Shown here: piece after piece, positions 1 to 15,549 of the stretch
How positions within the stretch are numbered: the first letter of the stretch is position 1
Layout of the letters: every line of letters starts with the position of its first letter
DNA from: a virus
IMG/VR virus record: IMGVR_UViG_3300012944_000503
Span: 1 to 21,101 of that record
Direction: 5' to 3' (one strand)
DNA length: 21,101 nt
The notes under the pieces: model-generated
What the model was told of the DNA's origin: nothing
The model's input: only the letters and a program-made list of their open reading frames with translations
Databases searched by the model: none
Made by a program: the position numbers and the translations under genes

Positions 1-397
1 AGCCCTGGGGCCCGCCATAGCCCTGCTGGGCCATCATGGCTCGGCGGCGCGACTGCTCATCCTGCTCTTGGTTGCGTCGGTGCCACATGTACAATCCGCC
101 ACCGGCGAGCGTCGGTGCGAGCTTGCCCACGTTTCCGAGAGCCTGCTGTCGGTGAGTCGCTCGCGCGAGGTCCATGCTCTGCGGCGGCACGGCCCCCGTG
201 ACCAGGGCGGAGTTCATCTGTCCGCCCAGGCCGCCGCGCAGGTTGTGGAACAAATCCTTCGCGGCCCCGACCTGGCCCGACCCGAACGTCTTGAGCTTGT
301 CGAGGATCCCTGCTGGCGCGACGTCCGCGATCTTGAACCTTGCCAGGGCGCGCTGGACGCCCGCATGAGCAAACGAGGTGACGCGAGCCGACAGCAT
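1..397 (-). CDS. Partial CDS, small Ala/Gly-rich putative virion-associated protein (C-terminus off the left edge)
   Basis: Reading leftwards from ATG at 397-395, the frame stays open to the window edge for 132 codons, so the C-terminus is missing. The start overlaps the stop of the upstream gene (TGA 399-397 shares one base with ATG), which suggests translational coupling. The N-terminal part contains an amphipathic stretch, AGVQRALARFKI (about residues 12-23), that resembles GVLAALERFGLK in the neighbouring gene. A Gly/Ala/Leu stretch around residues 95-104 (APTLAGGGLYMW) could be a short hydrophobic segment. It is followed by a highly charged run (HRRNQEQDEQSRRR) and a Gln/Gly-rich tail. 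I recognise no catalytic motif or family. Its place downstream of portal and RNA polymerase genes suggests a late or virion-associated protein, which is inference only. Confidence 0.6.
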   Translation of the reverse strand, partial: MLSARVTSFAHAGVQRALARFKIADVAPAGILDKLKTFGSGQVGAAKDLFHNLRGGLGGQMNSALVTGAVPPQSMDLARATHRQQALGNVGKLAPTLAGGGLYMWHRRNQEQDEQSRRRAMMAQQGYGGPQG

Positions 398-864
398 CAG
401 ACGCCTCCAAACGCAGATGGACCAACACCAGATCGGCCGCCGACATCACCGGCGGCCATGTTGCTCGGCGGACCCCAGTTGGTCGAGCGATCGAGCGGGT
501 TCTTGGACGCCACGAGCCCGCCCGGCTGTGGTGGCTCGTCGAGCGCTTGAAGCATGCGCGCCAGGTCCTCCGACGACCGTCGGTCGCCGTAGGTGTTCGC
601 CTTCTTGGCGTGGCCCTTCGCCGCCACTGTCCTGCCTGCCGCGTCGAATCCGTGGAAGGTCCGATCCGGAATCTTGAGCCGAAGTTCCTCCCCGGCGTGC
701 TTGAGGCCGAAGCGCTCCAGCGCGGCAAGCACGCCCGACGCGCTCGCGCGCTTGACGTGCTCCGGGAGCATCTCGCCCTTGGGCGTGTGGTCCGCGAACT
801 CCCGTGCGACCTCGGGGTGGTTGGCCCATAGGTACTTTCGCTGCGCTTCGGATCGAAAGGGCAC
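397..864 (-). CDS. Phage protein with N-terminal 'FRSEAQRKYLW' motif, 155 aa, function unknown
   Basis: The start is GTG at 864-862 with AGGG just upstream; the next gene begins inside its stop codon. The first 30 residues (PFRSEAQRKYLWANHPEVA, then DHTPKGEMLPEHV) match a short motif I know from many small proteins of tailed phages, often near structural genes, whose role is not established. Residues 43-60 form a predicted helix (GVLAALERFGLKHAGEEL) that has a partial counterpart in the next gene. The last 45 residues are rich in Gly, Pro and Ser and look disordered. The gene follows the RNA polymerase chain after 20 bases, so it is probably in the same transcript. It does not resemble the missing C-terminal half of beta'. 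Confidence that it is coding is high, but no function can be given. Confidence 0.75.
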   Translation of the reverse strand: MPFRSEAQRKYLWANHPEVAREFADHTPKGEMLPEHVKRASASGVLAALERFGLKHAGEELRLKIPDRTFHGFDAAGRTVAAKGHAKKANTYGDRRSSEDLARMLQALDEPPQPGGLVASKNPLDRSTNWGPPSNMAAGDVGGRSGVGPSAFGGV

Positions 865-884: not shown

Positions 885-3800
885 TCACTCGCCGACGTGG
901 ATATGGTCGTTCAGGGCGACCTCGCCGCGATGGTACGCCGCACGGGCATCCTGCAGCGACGCGAACCTCTTCGCGGCTCGATCGGAGGCCGGCTGGGTTG
1001 CTCGGTGGAGACCGAGCACGGCTTCCATGTCGGGTGCGACGTTGAGCATGCCCGGCCTCCGATCCGCGAAGATCTGGTGCGAGAGCGTCATTCGTTTGAC
1101 GTCCTCCACGCCCGCAGGCGTCACCGGAGCGTGGATCTGCATCGCGTCGCCGTCATAGTCCGCGTTGGTTCCACGCTCGGCGAACGGGTTGAGCGTGATC
1201 GTTTTGCCTTCAGTCATCCTCGGATAGGCGCCGATGATGTTGTGGCGGGTCAGCGAGGGTGCGCGGTTCACCATGACCGGGCGTTCCCTGGTCTCGTTGA
1301 TCAACTCGTCTTTGGCGATCGGCGCCTTGTCCTCCACTAACTTCTGTGCATCGATAGCCGAATAGCCTCGACGCACGAGTCGCCCGATTACGAACTTGGA
1401 ATACATGCCCCAAAGCATGTCAGTGGGCACCCCGATCTCGTCCATGGACAGCGTCGGGTCCGGCGCGATGGTCGCGCGCCCGCTGACGTCCTGCTGGCGC
1501 TTCATCAATTTGGACTGGAAGAACCCCGAGCCCGGTCGGCTTCCCGTGATCGTCGCGATGTACCCCTTGGCGCCGCGACGCTGCACCCCCGGGCTGACCG
1601 GATCGCCGACGCCGAACAACGCGCTGACCGCGTCGTACAGGTGCCTACGCGGCGCGTGAAGCTCGGGCCCGGGCAGAACGCCCACCGAGTCCTTCAACTG
1701 GTCGTTCGCCAGAAACGCGTCGCGGTAGAGCAGGTTCGCGTCGCCGACTTGGAGCCTGCCGTCCTTGAGGGGAAGGATCGGTCGAATGACCGGCGGCGTG
1801 ACCGGCACCTTGCTGATCACGTAGGCGTCGGCGGGCTTCAGCCCGTGCGCCTGGAGAGCCGCCAGGTACTTGGCCTGCTTGACGGCATCGTCGAGCGCCG
1901 CGCCGCGCAGGCGTCTCGATCGATCGCGCAGCTCCTCGAGTCGGGACGGCACGTCGATTCGACCCAGCGCCGCGCGGAACCACTCGCCACCGTGGCCGGT
2001 TTTCTCCGTGAACTCCTTTTGCGTCAGGCCCAGGAGCCGGCGCACGGGCTCCTCGAATACGGGGTTGACAATCGGCTCGGACAGCTCGACGTGCGACCAC
2101 TTCGTCCCGGCCATTCCGCCGGTTCTCGCGGGGTCGAACATCCCGCCGGTCTCGGGACGCAGGTCCTTGGCCCTGACCATCTTGCTCGGCTCCGGGAGCA
2201 CGCCCGAGGACATTTTCAGGATGTCCGCGTCGGTGAGCGGTCCCAGCGCCTGCCTCGAGCCGGCCTTGGAGATCTTGACGCCCGCACCCGAGAGCATCGC
2301 GTGCAGCTTGTCGTACGCGAACGGCGTGCGCGGCGCGGGTGCGGGGGTGCCGAGCTGCACCGAGCGCCAGAACTCGTCGTTGCGCTGGCTCTTGATCGCC
2401 GCGGACTCGCGAAGCACGGCGCGGGCGTTGTGCGCGACGAGACCGTCGAACTCCATCTTGCCGATGCCCTTGGCTCCGTCATCGCCGCCGCGGGCCGGCT
2501 GCTGGTTGTAGTCGTAGCGCTCGGCGCCGTGCGCCGCCCAGTTGCTGTCGGTCGTCTTGAACAGCTTGAGGAAGTACGACTTGCCGACGAACACGCCTGG
2601 CACGCTCTTGCCCGTCATCGGGTCGACCACCGTCTCCTTGTCTGACAGGCCGTTGGCCTTGAGCAGGTCCTTGGCGTAGGCGACGGCGTCCCGCGCGGCG
2701 AACTGCGGGACGAGGATGGGCTCGCCTCGATGATCGGCGACCTTGCCGAGCGACGCCTCGACCAGCTGGGCCGGGTTGATGCGCGTGATGATGCCGGCGC
2801 TGGTGAGGATGACGTCGACCGGGCGACCCTTCTCGTCCTGGATCATCTGGGCGTCGGGCACGACCTTGGCGACCACCCCCTTGGCGCCGTAGCGGTTTGA
2901 GATCTTGTCGCCGACCTGCAGGGTCTCCTGCGTCTTGACCGTCGCGCTGTGGCGCTCGCCGGTCTTCGAGACATCGGTCACGATCCCCGGGTGGTCGTGC
3001 GTCCATGTCTCGACGACCTCGGCGTAGGGGCGAACGAGCGACTTGGAGAGCTTCCCTAGCAGCGCGGCGTCGCCCGTCGCGGTCTCTGGCCTCACACCGA
3101 TGATGATCGGGTCGCCCTTCTGCAGGACGGTCCCCGGCCGGGCGACGCCGCTCTCGTCGAGCGCGTCGTACTGCCGAGCCGAGTACCGCCCACCGAAGTA
3201 CGCGCGGTGCTTCTCCCTGTTGGTCTCGACATCGCCGGCCTTGCTCAGCACGTGATGGAACATGTGCTCGGACGTGAGCTTGTCCGCCGCGCCCTGGCTG
3301 ACCACGATCCCGTCGTTAGTGTTCAGGCCGCGATACGGCATGTACGCCACGCGCAGATTGGTTCCCAGCGCGAGCACGCCGTCCCTGGTGAAGTTGGACT
3401 CGGCGAGCGGCTGGCCTTCGCGCACGAGGTCTCCCTCCTTCACCGTCAGCTTGTTGTCGAGGTAGGTCTTGGCCGCGAGCGGGAGGTCGTGATCGTAGTG
3501 CAGGCGGATGGGCCCGTCGGCAGCTCGCTTCTCGCCGCTCGGAACGAAGTGGATGTAGTCTGCGTCGATCTTGTCGATGCGGCCGGCTGTCGGCGCGGTT
3601 GGCACGATCAGCCGCACCATCTCCCGCTCGACCGACATGCCCGGATTCCAAGACTCGACCTGCACCAGGGGCGCCTCGCGGTGCAGCAAGGGAAGCGCCT
3701 GCCCCTGGTGCTTCGACGCCATCAGTGCGCGGTTGCCCTGCATGCCGTTGAGCAAGGGGAGAAGGTTGGTCGTCGCGCCATACATGTCCGAGGCGTGCCG

Positions 3801-5261
3801 TATCTGGTAGGTCACCTCCGACGACGCCACGCGCTGCACGGATCCGTCCTTCATCACGTCGACGATCTTCCCCGCGCCGAGATCCCCTCCGGGGAACGCG
3901 ACCACCGCCTTGGCCATGTCGGCAGCCTTGAGGTACTCGTCCTTGCCGGTCCGGACGTTCCGCACGGGCGCGTACAGGTTGCCATGGTCGTCTCTCCGCG
4001 TGCCGATCCCGACGCGCAGGTCGACGCCGACCTTGAAGGACTCGGGCACGCGCGTGGGATCAATGATGCCGAGGTGCGTGGAATGGACGTCTCGGGCCTC
4101 GAGCGGAATCGCGCGCTCCGAAGCGATCGCGCCCTCGCCCAGCAAGGTGACGCGTGACGCCTCGTCGACAAGCTCCATCGGGTTTATCTGCATCGGGACC
4201 GCGGACAACGAGCTGGTCGTCAGGAATCCCGTGACGGCTCGCGTGAGCGGCGCGGCGGGCAGGGCTTCCTTGATTGAGCCCCGGTTGGCGTCGAGCTTCC
4301 AACCCAGCTTGTTGCGCATGGCGCGCGCGTCCAGCTGCAAGCGCTCCCTGACGAAGTCGTCCACCGAGTGGAACGTCTTGAACGCAAGGCTGTCGCGGTC
4401 GTCGACGTCGGCGGACTTGCGATGAACCTCGAGGATCTTGTTCGACGCGGCGAGCATGGCTTGTCCCGACGCCTTGTCGAACGGGCTTCCGAGCGTTACG
4501 CGGTTAACCTCCGGGTCCATCGACGTGGCCTCGAGGTACTCTCGGATGGCCCCGACGCGGGCCTCGGGCGTGGCGTGATTCCGCTTGGCCGGATGGATCA
4601 GGGCCTCGTAGAGACGCCCGACATGGGCGTCGGGAGATCGAAAAGCGTCGCGGTTGATGGCCGCGACCTGCGGTCCCCAGCTTCGAACGATGTCGTGGTG
4701 CGGGACGTCGAGCGCTCGAAGGACGGGATAGAGCGCGACGCGGGCGGTCGTGTGCCCCGGCTGCATGTACAGAAGACCCTTCTCGGGCTCCATCATGACC
4801 TTGAAGTTCGCACCCTTTGACAGGTTGAACGCCGCCTCCAGCTCCTCGTTGCCTCGCCGACGAACGTAGACGCCCGGCTTGGTCCGGAGCTGGTTGGACA
4901 CGGAGTACTCCGTGCCGTCGAGTATGAACGTGTGGCGCGGCGTGAAGTAGGGGAGATGGAGCAACGTGAATCCCTGGGCGCGGCTAGCCACCGCGCCCTG
5001 CGCGTCGCGGACGGTCAGATCGCCGCGGACGCGCTCCGACAGCGTCTTTCCCTCGAGAATGGCCATTTTCTGCTCGCGCGACGAGAACTCGCGCGGCTCG
5101 ATGCGGGCGTCGGCAAGCTCGACCGTCCACTTGCCCGCCTTCATGGGGAAGGCCTTGCCGAGACCCTGGATGGCCGCCTGCCGAATCTTCTCCCTGCGCG
5201 TGGTGCTGTCTTCGAGGACGGGCCTTAGAACCGGCTGTGTTTTGGTAGAAGCATCCGTCAT
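885..5261 (-). CDS. Phage DNA-dependent RNA polymerase, beta subunit fused to N-terminal part of beta' (1458 aa)
   Basis: The beta part spans about residues 1-995. It shows YFTPRHTFILDGTEY, a fork/rifampicin region (SSLSAVPMQINP, about 351-361), THLGIIDPTRVPE, YMPYRGLNTNDGIVVS, GDKISNRYGAKG with both active-site lysines (K786, K794), and a C-terminal GEME-like segment (GKMEFDGLVAHNARAVLRE). The beta' part starts within a few residues: GGMFDP, HVELSEPI, clamp helices, PVTPPVIRPILPL, QQDVSGRATI, VNRAPSLTRHNI and the metal-binding NADYDGD (1366-1372). The chain ends about 86 residues later, at a point matching roughly residue 540 of E. coli beta', so the bridge helix and trigger loop are absent. 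The start is ATG 5261 with AGGA nine bases upstream; ATGA overlaps the previous stop. An extension to 5444 would run through the preceding gene in another frame and shows no homology. Host-type rpoB and rpoC are longer and separate. Single-subunit T7-type polymerase is excluded. Confidence 0.93.
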   Translation of the reverse strand: MTDASTKTQPVLRPVLEDSTTRREKIRQAAIQGLGKAFPMKAGKWTVELADARIEPREFSSREQKMAILEGKTLSERVRGDLTVRDAQGAVASRAQGFTLLHLPYFTPRHTFILDGTEYSVSNQLRTKPGVYVRRRGNEELEAAFNLSKGANFKVMMEPEKGLLYMQPGHTTARVALYPVLRALDVPHHDIVRSWGPQVAAINRDAFRSPDAHVGRLYEALIHPAKRNHATPEARVGAIREYLEATSMDPEVNRVTLGSPFDKASGQAMLAASNKILEVHRKSADVDDRDSLAFKTFHSVDDFVRERLQLDARAMRNKLGWKLDANRGSIKEALPAAPLTRAVTGFLTTSSLSAVPMQINPMELVDEASRVTLLGEGAIASERAIPLEARDVHSTHLGIIDPTRVPESFKVGVDLRVGIGTRRDDHGNLYAPVRNVRTGKDEYLKAADMAKAVVAFPGGDLGAGKIVDVMKDGSVQRVASSEVTYQIRHASDMYGATTNLLPLLNGMQGNRALMASKHQGQALPLLHREAPLVQVESWNPGMSVEREMVRLIVPTAPTAGRIDKIDADYIHFVPSGEKRAADGPIRLHYDHDLPLAAKTYLDNKLTVKEGDLVREGQPLAESNFTRDGVLALGTNLRVAYMPYRGLNTNDGIVVSQGAADKLTSEHMFHHVLSKAGDVETNREKHRAYFGGRYSARQYDALDESGVARPGTVLQKGDPIIIGVRPETATGDAALLGKLSKSLVRPYAEVVETWTHDHPGIVTDVSKTGERHSATVKTQETLQVGDKISNRYGAKGVVAKVVPDAQMIQDEKGRPVDVILTSAGIITRINPAQLVEASLGKVADHRGEPILVPQFAARDAVAYAKDLLKANGLSDKETVVDPMTGKSVPGVFVGKSYFLKLFKTTDSNWAAHGAERYDYNQQPARGGDDGAKGIGKMEFDGLVAHNARAVLRESAAIKSQRNDEFWRSVQLGTPAPAPRTPFAYDKLHAMLSGAGVKISKAGSRQALGPLTDADILKMSSGVLPEPSKMVRAKDLRPETGGMFDPARTGGMAGTKWSHVELSEPIVNPVFEEPVRRLLGLTQKEFTEKTGHGGEWFRAALGRIDVPSRLEELRDRSRRLRGAALDDAVKQAKYLAALQAHGLKPADAYVISKVPVTPPVIRPILPLKDGRLQVGDANLLYRDAFLANDQLKDSVGVLPGPELHAPRRHLYDAVSALFGVGDPVSPGVQRRGAKGYIATITGSRPGSGFFQSKLMKRQQDVSGRATIAPDPTLSMDEIGVPTDMLWGMYSKFVIGRLVRRGYSAIDAQKLVEDKAPIAKDELINETRERPVMVNRAPSLTRHNIIGAYPRMTEGKTITLNPFAERGTNADYDGDAMQIHAPVTPAGVEDVKRMTLSHQIFADRRPGMLNVAPDMEAVLGLHRATQPASDRAAKRFASLQDARAAYHRGEVALNDHIHVGE

Positions 5262-5629
5262 GGGATCCTGTATGGCACTACGGCAGCTTCTTCCCCGCCA
5301 CCCGCGCCGCCAACCACTGCCGGCTGTGGGCGCTGCGCGGGCGCGTCGGTGAAGTAGGACAGGATGATCACGACCTCGCCTTCCTTGGTGAAGGTTCTGT
5401 CCTCGAATCGAATCTTGCCCCGTCCGGCCCACAGCTCGTTGCACAGCTCGTCGTAGGCGGCGATGTTCCGCGGCAGGTTGAACACCTGGGTCGTCTGCCG
5501 GATCGGCAGACGCGGTCCCTGCGCCAACGCCTGCTGTGGGATGCCGAATGGGCTCGCGATCGGGCCCTGCGTCATCTGGTTCGCCTGGTCAATCACGTCC
5601 TGAAAGCCGCCCACGTTTGGCTTGTTCAT
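5258..5629 (-). CDS. Hypothetical protein, 123 aa, between portal and RNA polymerase
   Basis: ATG at 5629-5627 lies four bases after the portal stop, with an AGGAT Shine-Dalgarno inside the portal 3' end; its stop overlaps the polymerase start (ATGA). The first 45 residues are Gln/Pro/Gly-rich and probably flexible. The central part (about 48-93) looks like a compact alpha/beta domain, with NIAAYDELCNELWAG, then GKIRFEDRTFTKEGEVVIIL, a helix followed by two or three strands. The tail is rich in Ala, Gly and Pro. I do not recognise the family. The tight packing means it is made together with the portal and polymerase, so a virion role or a polymerase-associated role are both possible, but neither is shown by the sequence. 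Confidence 0.8.
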   Translation of the reverse strand: MNKPNVGGFQDVIDQANQMTQGPIASPFGIPQQALAQGPRLPIRQTTQVFNLPRNIAAYDELCNELWAGRGKIRFEDRTFTKEGEVVIILSYFTDAPAQRPQPAVVGGAGGGEEAAVVPYRIP

Positions 5630-5633
5630 GGCG

Positions 5634-7430
5634 CTATCCTATCTGATCCGAGGCGCCAACGCCGTCCACGTCCGCGCCGCCCGCGGTCGGGTCCTGCCCG
5701 GTGCGCGCCACGCTGATCGCGGCCCTGTTCTGCTGGTGGACCGCGTTCTCCATCCGCTCCTTGACCAGCGCGTACATCGGCAGGTCGGTGGTCTGGAGTT
5801 GGTGCATCTGCGACTGGCGCGTGCCCTGGTCGAGCGGCATCAGCTGCTCCACGACGCTGTCGGCCTGGTCGATCATCTGCTGGGGGTCGTAGGCGGCGCC
5901 CTGCTGACCGAGCTGCGCCTGCGCGCGGACCCGGGCGCCAAGCTCGGTCTGGCGCTTCTGCAGCTCGACCTGCGTCTCTGCGTTCATGCGGGCGTCGTCG
6001 AGCATCTCCTGCTTCCGCTTCTTGCGCTCCTCGATCGGGTCGACGTCGAACGGCTTGCCCATCGTGGTCTTGGAGATCCAGGGACCGTTCTGGGGATCAG
6101 CCATGTTGAGCTGCATCAGCAGCGCCTTTTGCTGGACATCGTCGATGAACCTGAACGGCGCAAGCTCCGTCGGCATCGGTCCCCAGCCGAGCTTGCGGCC
6201 GGCGTTGTCGGTGATCCACTGCAGGAAGTCGTTGAGATCGCCGGTCTGGTGAACGAGCTGGTTTTCTAGGACGCGAAGCTGGATCCCCGAGCCCATCGCG
6301 GAGAACCCGCCGTAGATGAACTCTTTCGGCAGGCCCATGGCCGCGATGATGTTGTCCTCCGCCGCTTGGACTTCGCCGAGCGTCATGAGCGCACGGGCCT
6401 GCCCGCCGAGATGCGTGACCTCGGCGGGGACAGGGGACCACATGATGTGCAGCGGGTCGCGGCGCCAGCGCTTGACCGAGTGCTTCATTTCGTTGGTCCA
6501 GGTCGCCAGGTTCATCGACAGGAGCGGATCCGCGTTCCCGGTCGACTGCTTCGGACTGACGATGCGGAGCGGCACGATGTAGTCCAGCGCGATCGCCTCG
6601 TTGGCCTTGCGGAGGACGGCCGCGTAGAAGAAGAGCTTGATGGTGGATGCCAGCGGCGGGAAGCCCCACTGGGCCTCGATGCCGGCGGGCGCGTCCATCT
6701 TCATGTGGAAGACCTGGTTCTCGGCGAACTTGAAGATCTTGTCGTCCCTCATGGCCTTGAGGAACTCCATGGGCAGGCTGTCGATGAGGTGCTTGTTGTT
6801 CTTGGCGACGCGCTCCTTCATCTCCTTCGGGATCGTCCAGAAGTACTCGCTGTGCCCGGTGATGGGGTTGTAGTCGATGTCGACCAGCTTGGGGTCCCAT
6901 CGGATGATCGCGATCTTGTCGGGGCGCGTGATGGGCTTGTCGACGACCGCCTCGGGTCCAACGTCGACCTTGGCCCGGCACGAGGCGCACGTGTAGCTGA
7001 ACGAGAGCTTCTTGAGGCGGAACTTGTAGCTGACCGATCCGGCGTTGGACAGCTGGCTGCACGCCGGGCACCGCAGGAACCGCACAAACGGCGAGTACAT
7101 CGAGTAGAAGGCGTTGCCGTACACGAACTTATCGATGGCCGCCTTGATCAGCCAGCGCTTGGTCTTGAGTTTCTTGTTGTGCAGGTCCTCGTACTTGGAC
7201 TTGAGCCCCTCGTTGGTCGTGTCGTACACGATGTCCGTGATCGGGTACGTGCAGAACTTTTGAAGCGCGGCGAAGATCTGGCTGCAGTTGAAGTAGAGGT
7301 ACTCGCACAGCCGGAAGAGGTCCTTCAGCTTCCTCGGCGCGAACGCGGTGAGGAAGTCGAACAACGGCGAGCCGTGGCTCGACACGTTGTGGAAGGAGAG
7401 ATCTGCGCCACCAGGATCGTTGTCCAACAT
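5634..7430 (-). CDS. Phage portal protein with internal zinc ribbon, 598 aa
   Basis: The portal forms the dodecameric ring at one capsid vertex through which DNA is packaged and to which the tail attaches. Portal-like features are the length, the YGNAFYSMY segment (about 100-115), RWDPKLVDIDYNPITGHSEYF, a middle region with TLGEVQAAEDNIIAAMGLPKEFIYGG, and a long Gln/Glu-rich C-terminal helix and tail. Unusually, residues 121-151 hold CPAC and CASC (C121, C124, C148, C151), a four-cysteine zinc ribbon placed between two strand-rich segments. The start is ATG 7430 with AGGATAA upstream. The open frame continues further upstream but crosses the divergent regulatory region. The assignment rests on overall pattern rather than one diagnostic motif, so it is likely but not certain. 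It is the first gene of the minus-strand operon. Confidence 0.78.
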   Translation of the reverse strand: MLDNDPGGADLSFHNVSSHGSPLFDFLTAFAPRKLKDLFRLCEYLYFNCSQIFAALQKFCTYPITDIVYDTTNEGLKSKYEDLHNKKLKTKRWLIKAAIDKFVYGNAFYSMYSPFVRFLRCPACSQLSNAGSVSYKFRLKKLSFSYTCASCRAKVDVGPEAVVDKPITRPDKIAIIRWDPKLVDIDYNPITGHSEYFWTIPKEMKERVAKNNKHLIDSLPMEFLKAMRDDKIFKFAENQVFHMKMDAPAGIEAQWGFPPLASTIKLFFYAAVLRKANEAIALDYIVPLRIVSPKQSTGNADPLLSMNLATWTNEMKHSVKRWRRDPLHIMWSPVPAEVTHLGGQARALMTLGEVQAAEDNIIAAMGLPKEFIYGGFSAMGSGIQLRVLENQLVHQTGDLNDFLQWITDNAGRKLGWGPMPTELAPFRFIDDVQQKALLMQLNMADPQNGPWISKTTMGKPFDVDPIEERKKRKQEMLDDARMNAETQVELQKRQTELGARVRAQAQLGQQGAAYDPQQMIDQADSVVEQLMPLDQGTRQSQMHQLQTTDLPMYALVKERMENAVHQQNRAAISVARTGQDPTAGGADVDGVGASDQIG

Positions 7431-7503
7431 GGAGATGTTTATCCTATAAACTTTGTAGACATTGCTGCGCGCGTCGTGTAACGGTGCGCAGGAGGTTTTC
7501 CGC
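7431..7503. promoter_or_regulatory. Divergent intergenic region between the late (minus) and recombination (plus) arms
   Basis: These 73 bases are the only non-coding DNA between two divergent operons, so both transcripts probably start here or just inside the flanking genes. The region is locally AT-rich in a GC-rich genome. It contains an inverted repeat, TTTAT-cct-ATAAA, at 7438-7450. Reading leftwards, TTACAC and, 18 bases later, TACAAA resemble weak -35 and -10 boxes for the portal operon. For the plus strand, TATAAA lies 19 bases after a TTGTCC that is inside the portal start region. These box assignments are by eye and tentative. A phage-specific promoter class is equally possible. Confidence 0.45.
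7490..7495 (+). promoter_or_regulatory. Shine-Dalgarno site that sets the helicase start
   Basis: A perfect AGGAGG lies eight bases before GTG 7504. It fixes this GTG as the start rather than the alternative initiation codon at 7462, which has no comparable site. Confidence 0.85.
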
Positions 7504-9462
7504 GTGAACCTTGAGATTCGAGTCGGCGCCGCGGGCAACGGGACGCCCGTGTTCATGGCGACCGGAAGCCATCCGGCGCTGGGACGCCCGTTCGGGGCTG
7601 TGTACGATTCCGGTCGTCGGCTCTGGATGTACCCGGCGTTTTACCCTGCCTCGAAGAAGGTGTTGTCCGACCTGGAGGTGATGTCCAAGGACTTCCACGT
7701 CACGTTCTCCGATGTCGCCAGGCGTCACGTGGTGGATCTCGAGCACGTTGAGGAGAGTGTAGCGAATCGGGCGCTTCCCGTGGGGTTCGAGTTCGTTACG
7801 CCGCCCTACGATCACCAGGTTCTGGGGTTGTGCCACGCGTGGTGGATGCTCCGTGCCGCGATCTTCTACGCCCCGGGGCTTGGGAAGTCCAAGATCGCGG
7901 TCGACCTGATTCGGCTGATGCGTCACGTCGGCCAGCGCGGCACGGTCCTCGTCCTGGGACCTCTCGTCACCGTCACCAACTGGGGCCGGGAGATCGACCG
8001 GCACTCCGGCGGCCAGCTTCGGTGGGTGATCCTCCACGGCTCCCCGGCCGAGCGGGTCGACATCCTGTCCACGATCGTGGAACACCCCCCGGACGTCGTG
8101 CTTCTCACGTATGACGGAGCGCGCGCGATGTCCACCGACCTCGTACGCCGGGTGCCGTACGCCGCGGTCATATGCGACGAGTCTCACCTTGTGAAGTCGT
8201 GGGAGTCGGGCCGAACGGTCGCGACCTACGACATTGCGCAGAAGGCCTCCCGGCGAATCCTGATGACGGGGTCCCCGACGCAGGGAGATCCGCGCGACAC
8301 CTACGGCCAGTACAAGGTCCTCGGCGACTGCTTCATGCCGGAGGACTACTCGCAGTTCAAGCGCAAGTTCCTGGTGACGCCGAGCCCGCGGTCCCACGTG
8401 GTGACCGGGTTTAAGAATCTCGACGTGCTCAACGGGCGGGTGACGTTCCTGTCGCTGCACAAGACGAAGGAGGAGTGCCTCGACCTTCCGGAGCAGGTCA
8501 TCGTGGACGTTCCCTACGTGTTGTCCAGGACGCAGAAGGTGGTGCACAACCAGCTTGTCGAGCAGATGGAGGTCGATCCTAACATCCTCGCCATCCTCAT
8601 GTTCGGACGACAGGCGTCGCTCCCGCCAGCGTCCCGCATGCCTCATCGCGCGGCGATGTTGATCAAGCTGCTGCAGATCGCGTCGGGGTTCCTCATCACC
8701 AATCCGATCGACGACGCGTTCTGCGACCAGGCAGAGCCCCATGGCTGCCGGCATCTCGAGGCCTGCGTCGAGGCCCGGATCCGCCCGCACACCCCTCGCT
8801 GCCTGGTGGACTCGACGAAGCTCCCCGACGTGCTCACGACGTTCGATGAGAATCCCAAGCTCGACGCGACCGAGGGGCTGCTCGAGATGATCCTGGCCGA
8901 CCCCGTCAACAAGACGATCATCTGGTGCACGTTCGAGAACGAGTTGAACATCGTGTCCGCCATGCTCGATCGGCGAGGGTGGGGTCACGTCCGGGTCGAC
9001 GGGTCCAACAGCCGGGAGGCCCAGGGGCTTATCGATCAGTTCACCGCGGACGCCGGACTGCGCGTGTACCTGGCGCAGGTCTCGACGGGCGTCGGGGTGA
9101 CGATCAACGCGGCCTCCTACATGATCTACTACGCGCTTCCGTTCTCGCTGATCGTCTACGAGCAATCCAAGGACCGGAACTACCGGATCGGGCAGACACG
9201 GAAGGTTACGGTGTATAGGATGCAGGGCGAGGGGACGCCCGAGCCGGCGATCGCTCGCCTTCTCGACGTCAAGATCGACGTCGACGATGCGCTCACGCGA
9301 CGTACTGATTGCATGCGATGCGAGCACAATCCCACGTGCATCCCGGCGGGCGTTCATCCGTTTGACGCCGGGTGCTCCGTGTACAAGAGGACCATTGACA
9401 GGCCGGTCACGCGGGCTCGCTCGTTCGAGGGAGCCGACGCGCCGGACATGGAGGAACCTTGA
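7504..9462 (+). CDS. SNF2/DEAD-like superfamily 2 helicase/ATPase with two four-cysteine modules, 652 aa
   Basis: The protein carries SF2 motifs in order: Q-like PPYDHQ, Walker A APGLGKSK (K128), motif Ia-like LVLGPLVTVTNW, Walker B DESH (225-228), motif III LMTGSPTQ, motif V STGVGVTINAA, and motif VI QSKDRNYRIGQT (R561), a pattern typical of the SNF2 branch. It should use ATP to translocate on or remodel DNA. Two cysteine modules are inserted: C407, C415, C421, C433 between the RecA lobes, and C603, C606, C612, C624 near the C-terminus. Both end C-x5-C-x11-C, which suggests duplicated zinc or Fe-S sites. The gene opens the plus-strand operon and its TGA overlaps the TTG start of the next gene. 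A role in phage recombination or replication fits the nearby RecB-like nuclease. Confidence 0.88.
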   Translation: MNLEIRVGAAGNGTPVFMATGSHPALGRPFGAVYDSGRRLWMYPAFYPASKKVLSDLEVMSKDFHVTFSDVARRHVVDLEHVEESVANRALPVGFEFVTPPYDHQVLGLCHAWWMLRAAIFYAPGLGKSKIAVDLIRLMRHVGQRGTVLVLGPLVTVTNWGREIDRHSGGQLRWVILHGSPAERVDILSTIVEHPPDVVLLTYDGARAMSTDLVRRVPYAAVICDESHLVKSWESGRTVATYDIAQKASRRILMTGSPTQGDPRDTYGQYKVLGDCFMPEDYSQFKRKFLVTPSPRSHVVTGFKNLDVLNGRVTFLSLHKTKEECLDLPEQVIVDVPYVLSRTQKVVHNQLVEQMEVDPNILAILMFGRQASLPPASRMPHRAAMLIKLLQIASGFLITNPIDDAFCDQAEPHGCRHLEACVEARIRPHTPRCLVDSTKLPDVLTTFDENPKLDATEGLLEMILADPVNKTIIWCTFENELNIVSAMLDRRGWGHVRVDGSNSREAQGLIDQFTADAGLRVYLAQVSTGVGVTINAASYMIYYALPFSLIVYEQSKDRNYRIGQTRKVTVYRMQGEGTPEPAIARLLDVKIDVDDALTRRTDCMRCEHNPTCIPAGVHPFDAGCSVYKRTIDRPVTRARSFEGADAPDMEEP

Positions 9463-12873: not shown

Positions 12874-13376
12874 AGCTCGCCGAGTACGTGATGTCCCTGC
12901 GCGAGGGTGCGGATCCTCGCAGGGACGCCTCGTTGGACCCCGTGGCGCGCGAGGTCGTCATTCAGCTCCGCGATCACGCGCCGCCCACGCTTCTGGAGCG
13001 ACTCGCGAAGCTGGACCGGATCGGACTGCTCAATGGCGATGTGCTGATGTCGTTGATCGCGCAGGCGCCCATCGATCCGCTCAACTTGTTCGCCACGATC
13101 CAGCAGAACAGCCCGGGCGAGTGGGTGTTCAGCGGGATCGACTTCGGCGTGGTTCGCGTGCTCGCGCGAAACGACGCGGGCAACGTCGCGGCCGCGGTGC
13201 GGATCGACTTGATGGACTCCAGTGTCAGCACGCTGGTTCTCAACCAGGCGGGGCAGCTCACGCCGTTCCGCCGCTACGAGCCCGAGGGGCCAGAGATCCT
13301 GGAGCGGGTCCAGGCGATGTGCGACGCGGCGATCGCGGCCGCGGCTAGGGAATTTATGCGGACTCGGCCGAGCTGA
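12870..13376 (+). CDS. Hypothetical protein, 168 aa, coupled to ParB-like gene
   Basis: It starts at GTG 12870, overlapping the ParB-like stop (GTGA), and ends 23 bases inside the 3' end of the opposite-strand sigma gene. The N-terminal 80 residues look helical (REVVIQLRDHA, LLERLAKLDRIGLL). The middle looks strand-rich (EWVFSGIDFGVVRVLARND, AAAVRIDLMDSSVSTLVL), and the C-terminus is an Ala-rich helix. I do not recognise the family. Coupling to the ParB-like gene suggests the two products work together, which is inference. Confidence 0.75.
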   Translation: MKLAEYVMSLREGADPRRDASLDPVAREVVIQLRDHAPPTLLERLAKLDRIGLLNGDVLMSLIAQAPIDPLNLFATIQQNSPGEWVFSGIDFGVVRVLARNDAGNVAAAVRIDLMDSSVSTLVLNQAGQLTPFRRYEPEGPEILERVQAMCDAAIAAAAREFMRTRPS

Positions 13377-14232
13377 CTAGGCCGAAGAGCGCGGCGTCCG
13401 CCTCGAGGTCGCGGCGGAGCACGTCGGACTCGAGGTCGCGTCGAACGAGACGGAGCGCGATGACCTTGATTTGCCGGACACGCTCCGGGGTCATTGACAT
13501 GATCTTTCCGATCTGTTCGAGGCTGCGAGGCTCGTTCCGGACACCGAAGTGAAGGCGGATGATGGTCGCCTCGCGCGTGGGTAGTTTGGACAACGCTGCC
13601 TCGAGCAGATCGGAGAGCTGTTTCGCGTGGTATTCGCTCGCAATTTCGACGCCTGCGCAAAGCTCCTCGTCACACACGTCTTCGATTCGGACGACGGGGT
13701 AGGTGACGCACTCGACGGCGGACGCCGCCTCCGAGCGGGGACCGTGCTGGGCTGCCGCCATTCGCTGCGCGTGTGCCTGCTTGCGCTGCTCCTTCTGCTT
13801 GTGTGTAGGGATGTGGACCGTCGAGCTGGACGCGTAGTCCTGGTCCATCATCTCCTTGTAGACCCAAGTCCCCGCGTAAGTGAGGAACCTAATGTACGGC
13901 GTCCTCTCGGGATTGAAGTGCCCCGGCTCGATCGCGCGCAGCAGGCCGAGGTTGCCGGCGGCGATGTAGTCCTGGAGGGCGTTTCGGTCGTTGGTCTTGC
14001 GATGCGCTTGGCGGACCACGAAACGGAGGTGGCTCTGGACCACGATGTCCCGCGCCCGCACGTCCCTGTGCCGCTGCCACAGCCGGATCAGGACGCGCTC
14101 CTCGTGGGGGTCCGTCACCGGCCGGGTGTTTCCTATGCTCGCGTAGTACGAGCGGCGGCTGTCCTCTTCGTCCGCCAGGTGGCGGGCCACACGCGGACGG
14201 TCGCTTGTCCTAGGACGAAAAGACTGATCCAT
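13354..14232 (-). CDS. Sigma-70 family RNA polymerase sigma factor, 292 aa
   Basis: Region 2 spans about 44-134, with the core-binding AAGNLGLLRAIE (91-102) and the region 2.3-2.4 segment FLTYAGTWVYKEMMDQDY. Region 3 begins with STVHIPTHKQKEQRK (137-151), closely like the start of region 3 in primary sigmas. Region 4 (about 208-268) has LSKLPTREATIIRLHFGV and the helix-turn-helix RSLEQIGKIMSMTPERVRQIK. It should bind an RNA polymerase core and recognise -10 and -35 elements. The aromatic pair of region 2.3 (WW in E. coli) appears as TW here, and the positions that read the -10 box also differ, so its promoters may be non-standard. It is the only minus-strand gene in the right arm. It could serve the host core or the phage polymerase chain at 5261-885. 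Confidence 0.9.
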   Translation of the reverse strand: MDQSFRPRTSDRPRVARHLADEEDSRRSYYASIGNTRPVTDPHEERVLIRLWQRHRDVRARDIVVQSHLRFVVRQAHRKTNDRNALQDYIAAGNLGLLRAIEPGHFNPERTPYIRFLTYAGTWVYKEMMDQDYASSSTVHIPTHKQKEQRKQAHAQRMAAAQHGPRSEAASAVECVTYPVVRIEDVCDEELCAGVEIASEYHAKQLSDLLEAALSKLPTREATIIRLHFGVRNEPRSLEQIGKIMSMTPERVRQIKVIALRLVRRDLESDVLRRDLEADAALFGLVSSAESA

Positions 14233-14457: not shown

Positions 14458-15549
14458 ATGAGCGTAAAGAACAAGAACGACAAGGTCGAGACGAAGCCTG
14501 AGACCAAGACCGCCGAGAAGCCGGTCGAGACCACCGAAACCGCCATGGCGGCTCCGATCAAGCCGGCGAAGATGGTGCGGGCCCGGCGCCCCGCTAAGCC
14601 GGCTCGCGGACTCGAGCTGATGAACAAGGACCCTGTCGAGCTGGACAACGCGGTGGGCGCAGCGATGGAGGAGCTGGTGACCTTGTCCACTGATCCGAAG
14701 CTGCCCACGGAATACCAGAAGATCGTCGAAGGCCTCGTGAGTCAGGCCTCGACGGAGAAGCCGGGCATGGAGGAAGTCGTGACCGGGTGGAAGGTCCCGC
14801 GCATCACGATTAACCAGCCCACCACGACCGCGGCCGCTCGGCCGGAGGCCGCCAAGCTCGGCGAACTGTACACGAGCGAGGGCAAGATTCTCGAGAAGCC
14901 GTTCCCGTTTCTCGTCTTCAGCATCTTCTACGAGAATGTAAATTTCCCACAGGGCGCGAAGGTTCCCGCGTGCGTCGCCCCCGACGCGCACCTCGGCAAC
15001 CCGTTCGGCAAGTGCCTGGAGTGCCCGCATCTGCCCTACGGCATGCAGCCCGGTGATGAGCAGAAGGTCACCGATTGCCAGAACCAGGTGGTGGCGATCG
15101 TGGCGACCGCGGACATGAGCAAGGTCTACATGATCCAATTCGCCAAGACCTCGAGGAAGGCCGGAAGCGCCCTCCAGTCGCTCGCGGGCGCGAGCAACCG
15201 GATGTGGGACAACAGCTTTCTGCTTTCGACCGAGAAGGGTACGGGCACGCAGGGCGCGTACTTCACCATGAAGGTCGAGCCGACGGGCAAGGCCAACAAC
15301 GAGCACGTCAGCAGGATCGCCCAGGCACTCTGCAACCTGTACCGCGCGGAGCGCGATCGCGCGCTCGCTGGTCACTACGTCGCGATGGCCTCGGCACCTG
15401 CCGTGGCGGCCGCGGCGGAGGCGTCGTTCGAGGGCAGCAAGTTGGACGCAGGCCTCGCGGGGGAGACGGAGTCGTACGATCTGGGCGAGGGGGCGACGCC
15501 GCCGCCGGCGGGCGCGGGTTCGGTTCGGTCCTCTGCCAAGCCGATGTGA
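14458..15549 (+). CDS. Putative ssDNA-binding/replication accessory protein with four-cysteine site, 363 aa
   Basis: Residues 1-50 are Lys, Thr, Glu and Pro rich and disordered. A folded domain spans about 105-305, with GWKVPRITINQP, a hydrophobic strand FPFLVFSIFY and four cysteines (C172, C186, C189, C207; CLECPHLPYG is the core). After these come VVAIVATADMSKVYMIQFA and a helical end. Phage families with this pattern (strands, a C-x2-C-P core, a later C, then a hydrophobic strand) are often annotated as ssDNA-binding proteins with a zinc site, and its place as first gene of the replication operon fits. The last 60 residues are Ala, Gly and Pro rich and lack the acidic tip usual in bacterial SSB. 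ATG 14458 has AAAGGA eight bases upstream. The coding call is firm; the function is tentative. Confidence 0.7.
   Translation: MSVKNKNDKVETKPETKTAEKPVETTETAMAAPIKPAKMVRARRPAKPARGLELMNKDPVELDNAVGAAMEELVTLSTDPKLPTEYQKIVEGLVSQASTEKPGMEEVVTGWKVPRITINQPTTTAAARPEAAKLGELYTSEGKILEKPFPFLVFSIFYENVNFPQGAKVPACVAPDAHLGNPFGKCLECPHLPYGMQPGDEQKVTDCQNQVVAIVATADMSKVYMIQFAKTSRKAGSALQSLAGASNRMWDNSFLLSTEKGTGTQGAYFTMKVEPTGKANNEHVSRIAQALCNLYRAERDRALAGHYVAMASAPAVAAAAEASFEGSKLDAGLAGETESYDLGEGATPPPAGAGSVRSSAKPM

What the first reader, a model, noticed from the sequence alone, without database searches (positions are those of the whole stretch)
885..1166. Beta' stops just after the metal-binding loop; bridge helix and trigger loop must be encoded elsewhere
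After D1372 only 86 residues remain, aligning up to about residue 540 of E. coli beta' (the MEAVLGL and ARAAYHRGEVAL-HIHV segments are still recognisable). The genes at 864-397 and 397-1 do not look like beta' C-terminus. The split is clean, not a frameshift, which predicts a separate beta'-C gene outside the window.
Basis: partly seen in the sequence, partly recalled or inferred. Interest (0 to 1): 0.7.

Follow-up and report, generated by a model that had tools for sequence, protein, structure and literature searches.

The report
Phage RNA polymerase cut in two
This virus of bacteria carries its own RNA polymerase as two proteins, the whole beta subunit welded to the first half of beta', plus the second half of beta' made by a separate gene that starts about 19 bases past the end of the window, an unusual build that may show how such viral polymerases hold together without the usual alpha subunits.

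Summary
The 1,458-aa beta-beta' fusion (5261-885, minus strand) ends 86 residues after the NADYDGD metal loop, at about residue 550 of enterobacterial beta'. The next two ORFs are not RNA polymerase. The prediction also holds, by inference from relatives. A contig 90.6% identical over the last 9.6 kb (L004) carries a 592-aa gene with bridge helix, trigger loop and second zinc site. It starts 19 bases past window base 1. In 92 non-identical IMG/VR or phage loci that hold both parts, 91 show the same cut, with beta'-C 0.5-5.7 kb downstream on the same strand. The other one, and three more found with it, encode the whole beta-beta' in one 1,975-1,998-aa ORF; these four form the sister clade of the split forms. 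Salmonella phage Arash is an isolated relative, and published proteomics found both pieces in its virions, with a small sigma factor that is conserved in every relative tested. I read this as an alpha-less virion RNA polymerase: covalent beta-beta'N, separate beta'-C, phage sigma. Split beta' and fused beta-beta' are each known; I found no description of this combination. The biochemistry is untested.

The parts
885..5261 (-). beta-beta'N fusion gene, 1,458 aa (ATG at 5261, overlapping the stop of the gene before)
2268..5261 (-). beta part (about residues 1-998), with the two active-site lysines of the beta barrel (E. coli K1065 and K1073) at about 2880-2906
   Evidence: alignment to Salmonella RpoB
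885..2267 (-). beta'N part, joined directly to beta; corresponds to RpoC about 15-552, without the N-terminal zinc-binding cysteines (C70-C88)
1146..1166 (-). NADYDGD metal-binding loop
885..1145 (-). tail after the metal loop, 86 residues and stop; homologous to RpoC up to about 552
397..864 (-). 155-aa intervening ORF, not RNA polymerase
1..397 (-). intervening ORF that runs off the window; 137 aa in L004, where the beta'-C ATG follows 1 base after its stop (19 bases past window base 1)
5258..5629 (-). small gene between portal and RNA polymerase, kept in the Vibrio relative
5634..7556 (-). portal protein (30% identical to Arash gp204, annotated portal); portal lies upstream of the RNA polymerase gene in 132 of 136 loci
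13354..14232 (-). sigma-70-type factor (regions 2 and 4), related to Arash gp196; not the virion sigma gp10

Best explanation
The phage encodes a bacterial-type RNA polymerase core in two polypeptides: a beta-beta'N fusion with both catalytic barrels, and a separate beta'-C with bridge helix, trigger loop and the second zinc site. The break lies in the linker after the beta' barrel (about RpoC 552-572). The two chains probably meet across that linker to rebuild a normal cleft. Covalent joining of beta to beta'N probably replaces the alpha dimer that bacteria need for assembly. The enzyme is probably packaged in the virion with a small conserved phage sigma factor and injected to transcribe the first genes. 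Shown here: the two genes, their motifs, the conserved cut and order, the lack of detectable alpha, and the conserved gp10-type sigma. Shown by others for the relative Arash: all three proteins in purified particles. Inferred: assembly, activity, early transcription.
For: The cut is at the same place in 91 of 92 non-identical loci that hold both parts, always with beta'-C downstream on the same strand. beta'-C keeps C814, C888, C895 and C898 of RpoC, H936 of the trigger loop, and R780 and G794 of the bridge helix in all 15 sequences. It matches solved beta' chains (1e-40). The fusion keeps NADxDGD and both beta lysines. No alpha-type domain passes its cut-off in 13 large phage records while 13 of 14 control genomes ring. 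A gp10 sigma relative is present in 10 of 10 records. In Arash virions Gp206 gave 3,516 spectra, Gp216 1,210 and Gp10 467 (PMC10585845), or 2.3, 2.0 and 2.0 spectra per residue, compatible with about 1:1:1.
Against: The window's own record stops before beta'-C. Spectral counts are only a rough guide to stoichiometry, and the authors of the Arash paper note that abundant intracellular enzymes could remain in particle preparations. Trigger-loop R933 and M932 and several bridge-helix residues are replaced, so catalysis may differ from the bacterial enzyme. Host alpha could still bind. No activity data were found.
Confidence: 0.75

Rival explanations
1. The two halves are joined after translation by a split intein, or at RNA level by an intron, so the working enzyme is one chain.
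For: Relatives carry intein-like inserts at other sites in the fusion, and Vibrio phages D181 and D148 have the fusion gene broken around a homing endonuclease gene.
Against: The fusion ends in plain beta' sequence and beta'-C begins with plain beta' sequence, with no intein motif on either side. Arash Gp206 (100% coverage) and Gp216 (89%) are reported as separate entries, which does not by itself exclude joining. Unrelated genes lie between the halves, and Rfam finds no intron there.
Confidence: 0.03
2. A nonfunctional remnant: the beta' gene was truncated and the phage uses host beta' or host RNA polymerase.
For: The window alone shows only the first half of beta'.
Against: Catalytic residues are invariant from the window to Arash. 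beta'-C is present in every split relative with enough downstream sequence except L077, where 5.3 kb of downstream room is not decisive. Both proteins are abundant in Arash particles.
Confidence: 0.03
3. The enzyme is a middle or late, non-virion polymerase; its presence in Arash particles is carry-over.
For: 116 proteins, including ribonucleotide reductases and RNA ligases, were found in the Arash preparation. The window also has a gp196-type sigma, and gp196 is not mentioned in the Arash paper's main text.
Against: Gp206 had the highest count of all proteins, above the capsid protein. The gene lies downstream of portal in 132 of 136 loci. The sigma detected in particles is the one conserved in all records tested.
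Confidence: 0.25
4. The one-piece forms (L164 group) are refusions, so the split was the older state in this phage lineage.
For: Their junction lacks about 45 residues that bacteria and the split halves keep, as a deletion between two neighbouring genes would produce.
Against: Rooted on bacteria, the four one-piece forms are sister to all split forms in both the beta-beta'N tree and the beta'-C tree, so one splitting event after fusion is the simplest history.
Confidence: 0.4

Closest known systems
RNA polymerase of Salmonella phage Arash (Gp206 + Gp216) and Vibrio phages D69, D148, D181
   Same: Same fusion, same cut, portal gene upstream, beta'-C downstream on the same strand
   Different: About 30-35% identical; annotated or described simply as beta and beta' (or hypothetical), the fusion and split not remarked on in the passages read
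mReC phages (multi-subunit RNAP-encoding Caudovirales, PMC7481178)
   Same: Large tailed phages from IMG/VR and other metagenomes with readily recognised beta and beta' homologues that branch apart from cells
   Different: That paper treats beta and beta' as two subunits and does not use the word split; its fusion passages concern crAssphage. Overlap of contigs could not be tested.
phiKZ- and AR9-type jumbo-phage RNA polymerases (vRNAP and nvRNAP)
   Same: beta' split after the catalytic barrel; no alpha; a virion form exists
   Different: There beta is also split into two or three chains, beta and beta'N are separate, and no sigma gene of the usual kind is present
Cyanobacterial and plastid rpoC1/rpoC2 (gamma and beta')
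   Same: beta' split in the same linker after the barrel
   Different: Exact break may differ by tens of residues; beta is not fused; alpha is present
Helicobacter and Wolbachia rpoBC fusion (own knowledge)
   Same: beta and beta' joined head to tail
   Different: There beta' is not cut; the one-piece phage group L164, L172, L174, L175 looks more like this

Membership tests
Multisubunit (double-barrel) RNA polymerase | NADxDGD Asp triad in beta' | tested here: met
   D1366, D1368, D1370 in P0001 numbering
Multisubunit (double-barrel) RNA polymerase | two Lys of the beta barrel (E. coli K1065, K1073) | tested here: met
   K784 and K792 in P0001 numbering
Multisubunit (double-barrel) RNA polymerase | bridge helix, trigger loop and second zinc site (beta'-C) | tested here: met
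   Met in the relatives' beta'-C gene, with some substitutions; outside the window
Multisubunit (double-barrel) RNA polymerase | N-terminal zinc-binding domain of beta' | tested here: not met
   C70-C88 region has no counterpart; it is also absent in the AR9 nvRNAP, so it is not essential to the wider superfamily
Bacterial RNA polymerase (alpha2-beta-beta'-omega) | own alpha subunit for assembly | tested here: not met
   No PF01193 match over cut-off in 13 large phage records, 13 of 14 controls ring
mReC phage lineage | beta and beta' alignable to cells but in a separate clade | tested here: met
   All phage sequences form one clade apart from the four bacterial outgroups used; the paper's own mReC sequences were not in the tree
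mReC phage lineage | Gp23-type capsid protein PF07068 | tested here: inconclusive
   No match in 13 records, but no control rang either
phiKZ-type jumbo-phage RNA polymerase | beta' split after the catalytic barrel | tested here: met
phiKZ-type jumbo-phage RNA polymerase | beta split into two or three chains | tested here: not met
   beta is whole and joined to beta'N in the loci examined, apart from Vibrio D181/D148 where a homing endonuclease gene interrupts it
Virion RNA polymerase | present in mature particles and injected | not testable with these tools
   Presence in Arash particles is published; injection is not shown, and nothing is known for the window's phage

The most novel reading that the evidence does not exclude
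In this phage lineage beta and beta' were first fused into one chain (still seen in the L164 group), and the chain was then cut after the beta' barrel, at the same linker that was cut independently in cyanobacteria and jumbo phages. The result is a sigma-dependent, alpha-less two-chain polymerase carried in the virion.
Probability: 0.4. Interest if true: 0.75.

Novelty: new variant of a known kind. Interest (0 to 1): 0.58.

Why it matters
How phage multisubunit RNA polymerases hold beta and beta' parts together without alpha is stated as unknown in the review PMC7598289. A covalent beta-beta'N chain with beta'-C added is a simple answer for this lineage that can be tested by expression. The existence of one-piece and two-piece forms in one phage lineage lets the order of fusion and splitting be worked out. 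If the cut arose inside this lineage, it also shows that a split after the barrel need not come from cyanobacteria.

Tried and rejected
Frameshift or sequencing error at 885: rejected, the end is conserved. Beta'-C inside the two small ORFs: rejected. Split intein or intron at the break: no sign. Structure prediction of beta'-C and of the last 917 residues of the fusion gave poor models (pLDDT 61 and 50), probably because the alignments were shallow. Foldseek of the beta'-C model still returns bacterial beta' first, but the model's confidence is low and I give it little weight. The mReC capsid test gave no answer. Literature searches for a fused and split phage RNA polymerase found no description of this combination (one search failed on a character). 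IQ-TREE first failed on thread count and was rerun.

Full report
What is there. The window is a 21,101-base virus record from a tailed phage (portal, helicase, primase-like protein, sigma factor). On the minus strand, genes run portal (7556-5634), a small gene (5629-5258) and a 1,458-aa RNA polymerase protein (5261-885). The protein holds all of beta and the first half of beta' in one chain. Alignment to Salmonella RpoB and RpoC shows beta up to about residue 998, then beta' from about RpoC 15 to 552, with the N-terminal zinc-binding cysteines missing. NADYDGD lies at 1166-1146 and 86 residues follow.

Where the rest is. The window has no match to the beta' domain with the trigger loop. IMG/VR holds a 156-kb relative, L004, which matches the last 9,646 bases of this strand at 90.6% identity; the match ends at L004 15255, opposite window base 1. 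Its next gene starts with ATG at 15274 and encodes 592 residues. They match Pfam Rpb1_5 (9e-17) and bacterial beta' chains in the PDB (1e-40). Aligned to Salmonella RpoC it starts at about residue 572. Across 15 relatives it keeps the four cysteines of the second zinc site, His936 of the trigger loop, and Arg780 and Gly794 of the bridge helix, and it lacks the enterobacterial trigger-loop insertion. Arg933 and Met932 are replaced. So the break falls in a variable linker and about 20 residues, RpoC 552 to 572, have no counterpart.

How general it is. Scans with the fusion and with beta'-C brought the set to 166 phage loci. After removal of identical ones, 92 hold both parts; in 91 beta'-C is a separate gene on the same strand, 507 to 5,729 bases downstream (median about 1,485), and in one, L164, everything lies in one ORF. 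Loci with only the fusion mostly end within 2.5 kb after it; L077 has 5.3 kb without a match, which is not decisive. A scan with L164 found three further one-piece forms, L172, L174 and L175 (ORFs of 1,975-1,993 codons). Portal lies upstream in 132 of 136 loci.

History. Trees of beta-beta'N (FastTree and IQ-TREE) and of beta'-C (FastTree), rooted on four bacterial sequences, place the one-piece group as sister to all split forms (the IQ-TREE run held only L164 of that group). The simplest reading is that fusion came first and the cut second. Against this, the one-piece junction lacks about 45 residues that bacteria and the split halves retain, so a refusion by deletion is also possible. I leave this near even. 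Jumbo phages and cyanobacteria are cut in the same linker (PMC7598289). The cyanobacterial gamma chain matches the phage protein up to gamma residue 558 of 625, and cyanobacterial beta' residue 35 matches beta'-C residue 44, so the break points are close but not proven identical.

How it most likely works. Salmonella phage Arash has the same genes: Gp206 (fusion, annotated beta) and Gp216 (beta'-C, described as beta'). In sucrose-gradient particles Gp206 gave the most spectra of any protein (3,516), with Gp216 at 1,210 and the small sigma Gp10 at 467 (PMC10585845); per residue these are 2.3, 2.0 and 2.0. A Gp10 relative is present in 10 of 10 records tested, split and one-piece alike. No alpha-type domain passes its cut-off in 13 large records. 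I conclude that this is most likely a virion RNA polymerase with covalent beta-beta'N, added beta'-C, its own sigma and no alpha. Particle carry-over is the main alternative, and the Arash authors raise it themselves.

What is new. Splitting beta' here and fusing beta to beta' are each known, and the proteins of Arash are in public records. I found no paper that describes the fused-and-split arrangement or the one-piece sister group, though supplementary files and most subscription journals were not searched. The study of mReC phages (PMC7481178) accepted proteins of at least 800 aa with NADxDGD as beta'; the 592-aa beta'-C would fail that test and the fusion would pass, so some of its beta and beta' pairs may be single fusion proteins. 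That is an inference.

Noticed in passing
L012, L013, L017-L019, L021, L026, L027 (relatives of window 885-5261): Intein-like in-frame inserts of about 330-350 aa in the beta part, at about residue 410-420 or at residue 786; many relatives' fusion ORFs reach 1,793-2,831 aa.
   Followed up: partly
L014 9806-14758; similar insert in L028: A GNAT acetyltransferase domain (PF00583, 3.8e-7 in L014) is inserted in beta near residue 580.
   Followed up: partly
L003 6001-11494 (Vibrio phage D181; D148 alike): The fusion gene is broken into two ORFs of about 514 and 1,006 aa around a homing endonuclease gene, a possible example of how such genes become split.
   Followed up: no
L015, L024, L025, L028: beta'-C carries a 370-500-aa C-terminal extension; the L015 one matches no Pfam family.
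   Followed up: no
L164, L172, L174, L175: Whole beta-beta' in one ORF of 1,975-1,998 codons. The records of L164 and L175 have a gp10-type sigma relative, while those of L164, L174 and L175 show no Sigma70_r2 match by Pfam.
   Followed up: partly
window 4146-4193 (-): Rifampicin-pocket positions differ from enterobacterial RpoB (D516M, H526E, S531T), which predicts rifampicin resistance.
   Followed up: no
OR846602, OR849902, CAKLQH020000005 and similar records in the phage collection: Several records filed as phage carry ordinary-looking bacterial rpoB-rpoC and are probably host contigs.
   Followed up: no
G001:C1:132543-133244 (record of L004): In the closest relative the gp10-type sigma lies in an open frame of 1,219 aa, possibly fused to another protein.
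   Followed up: no
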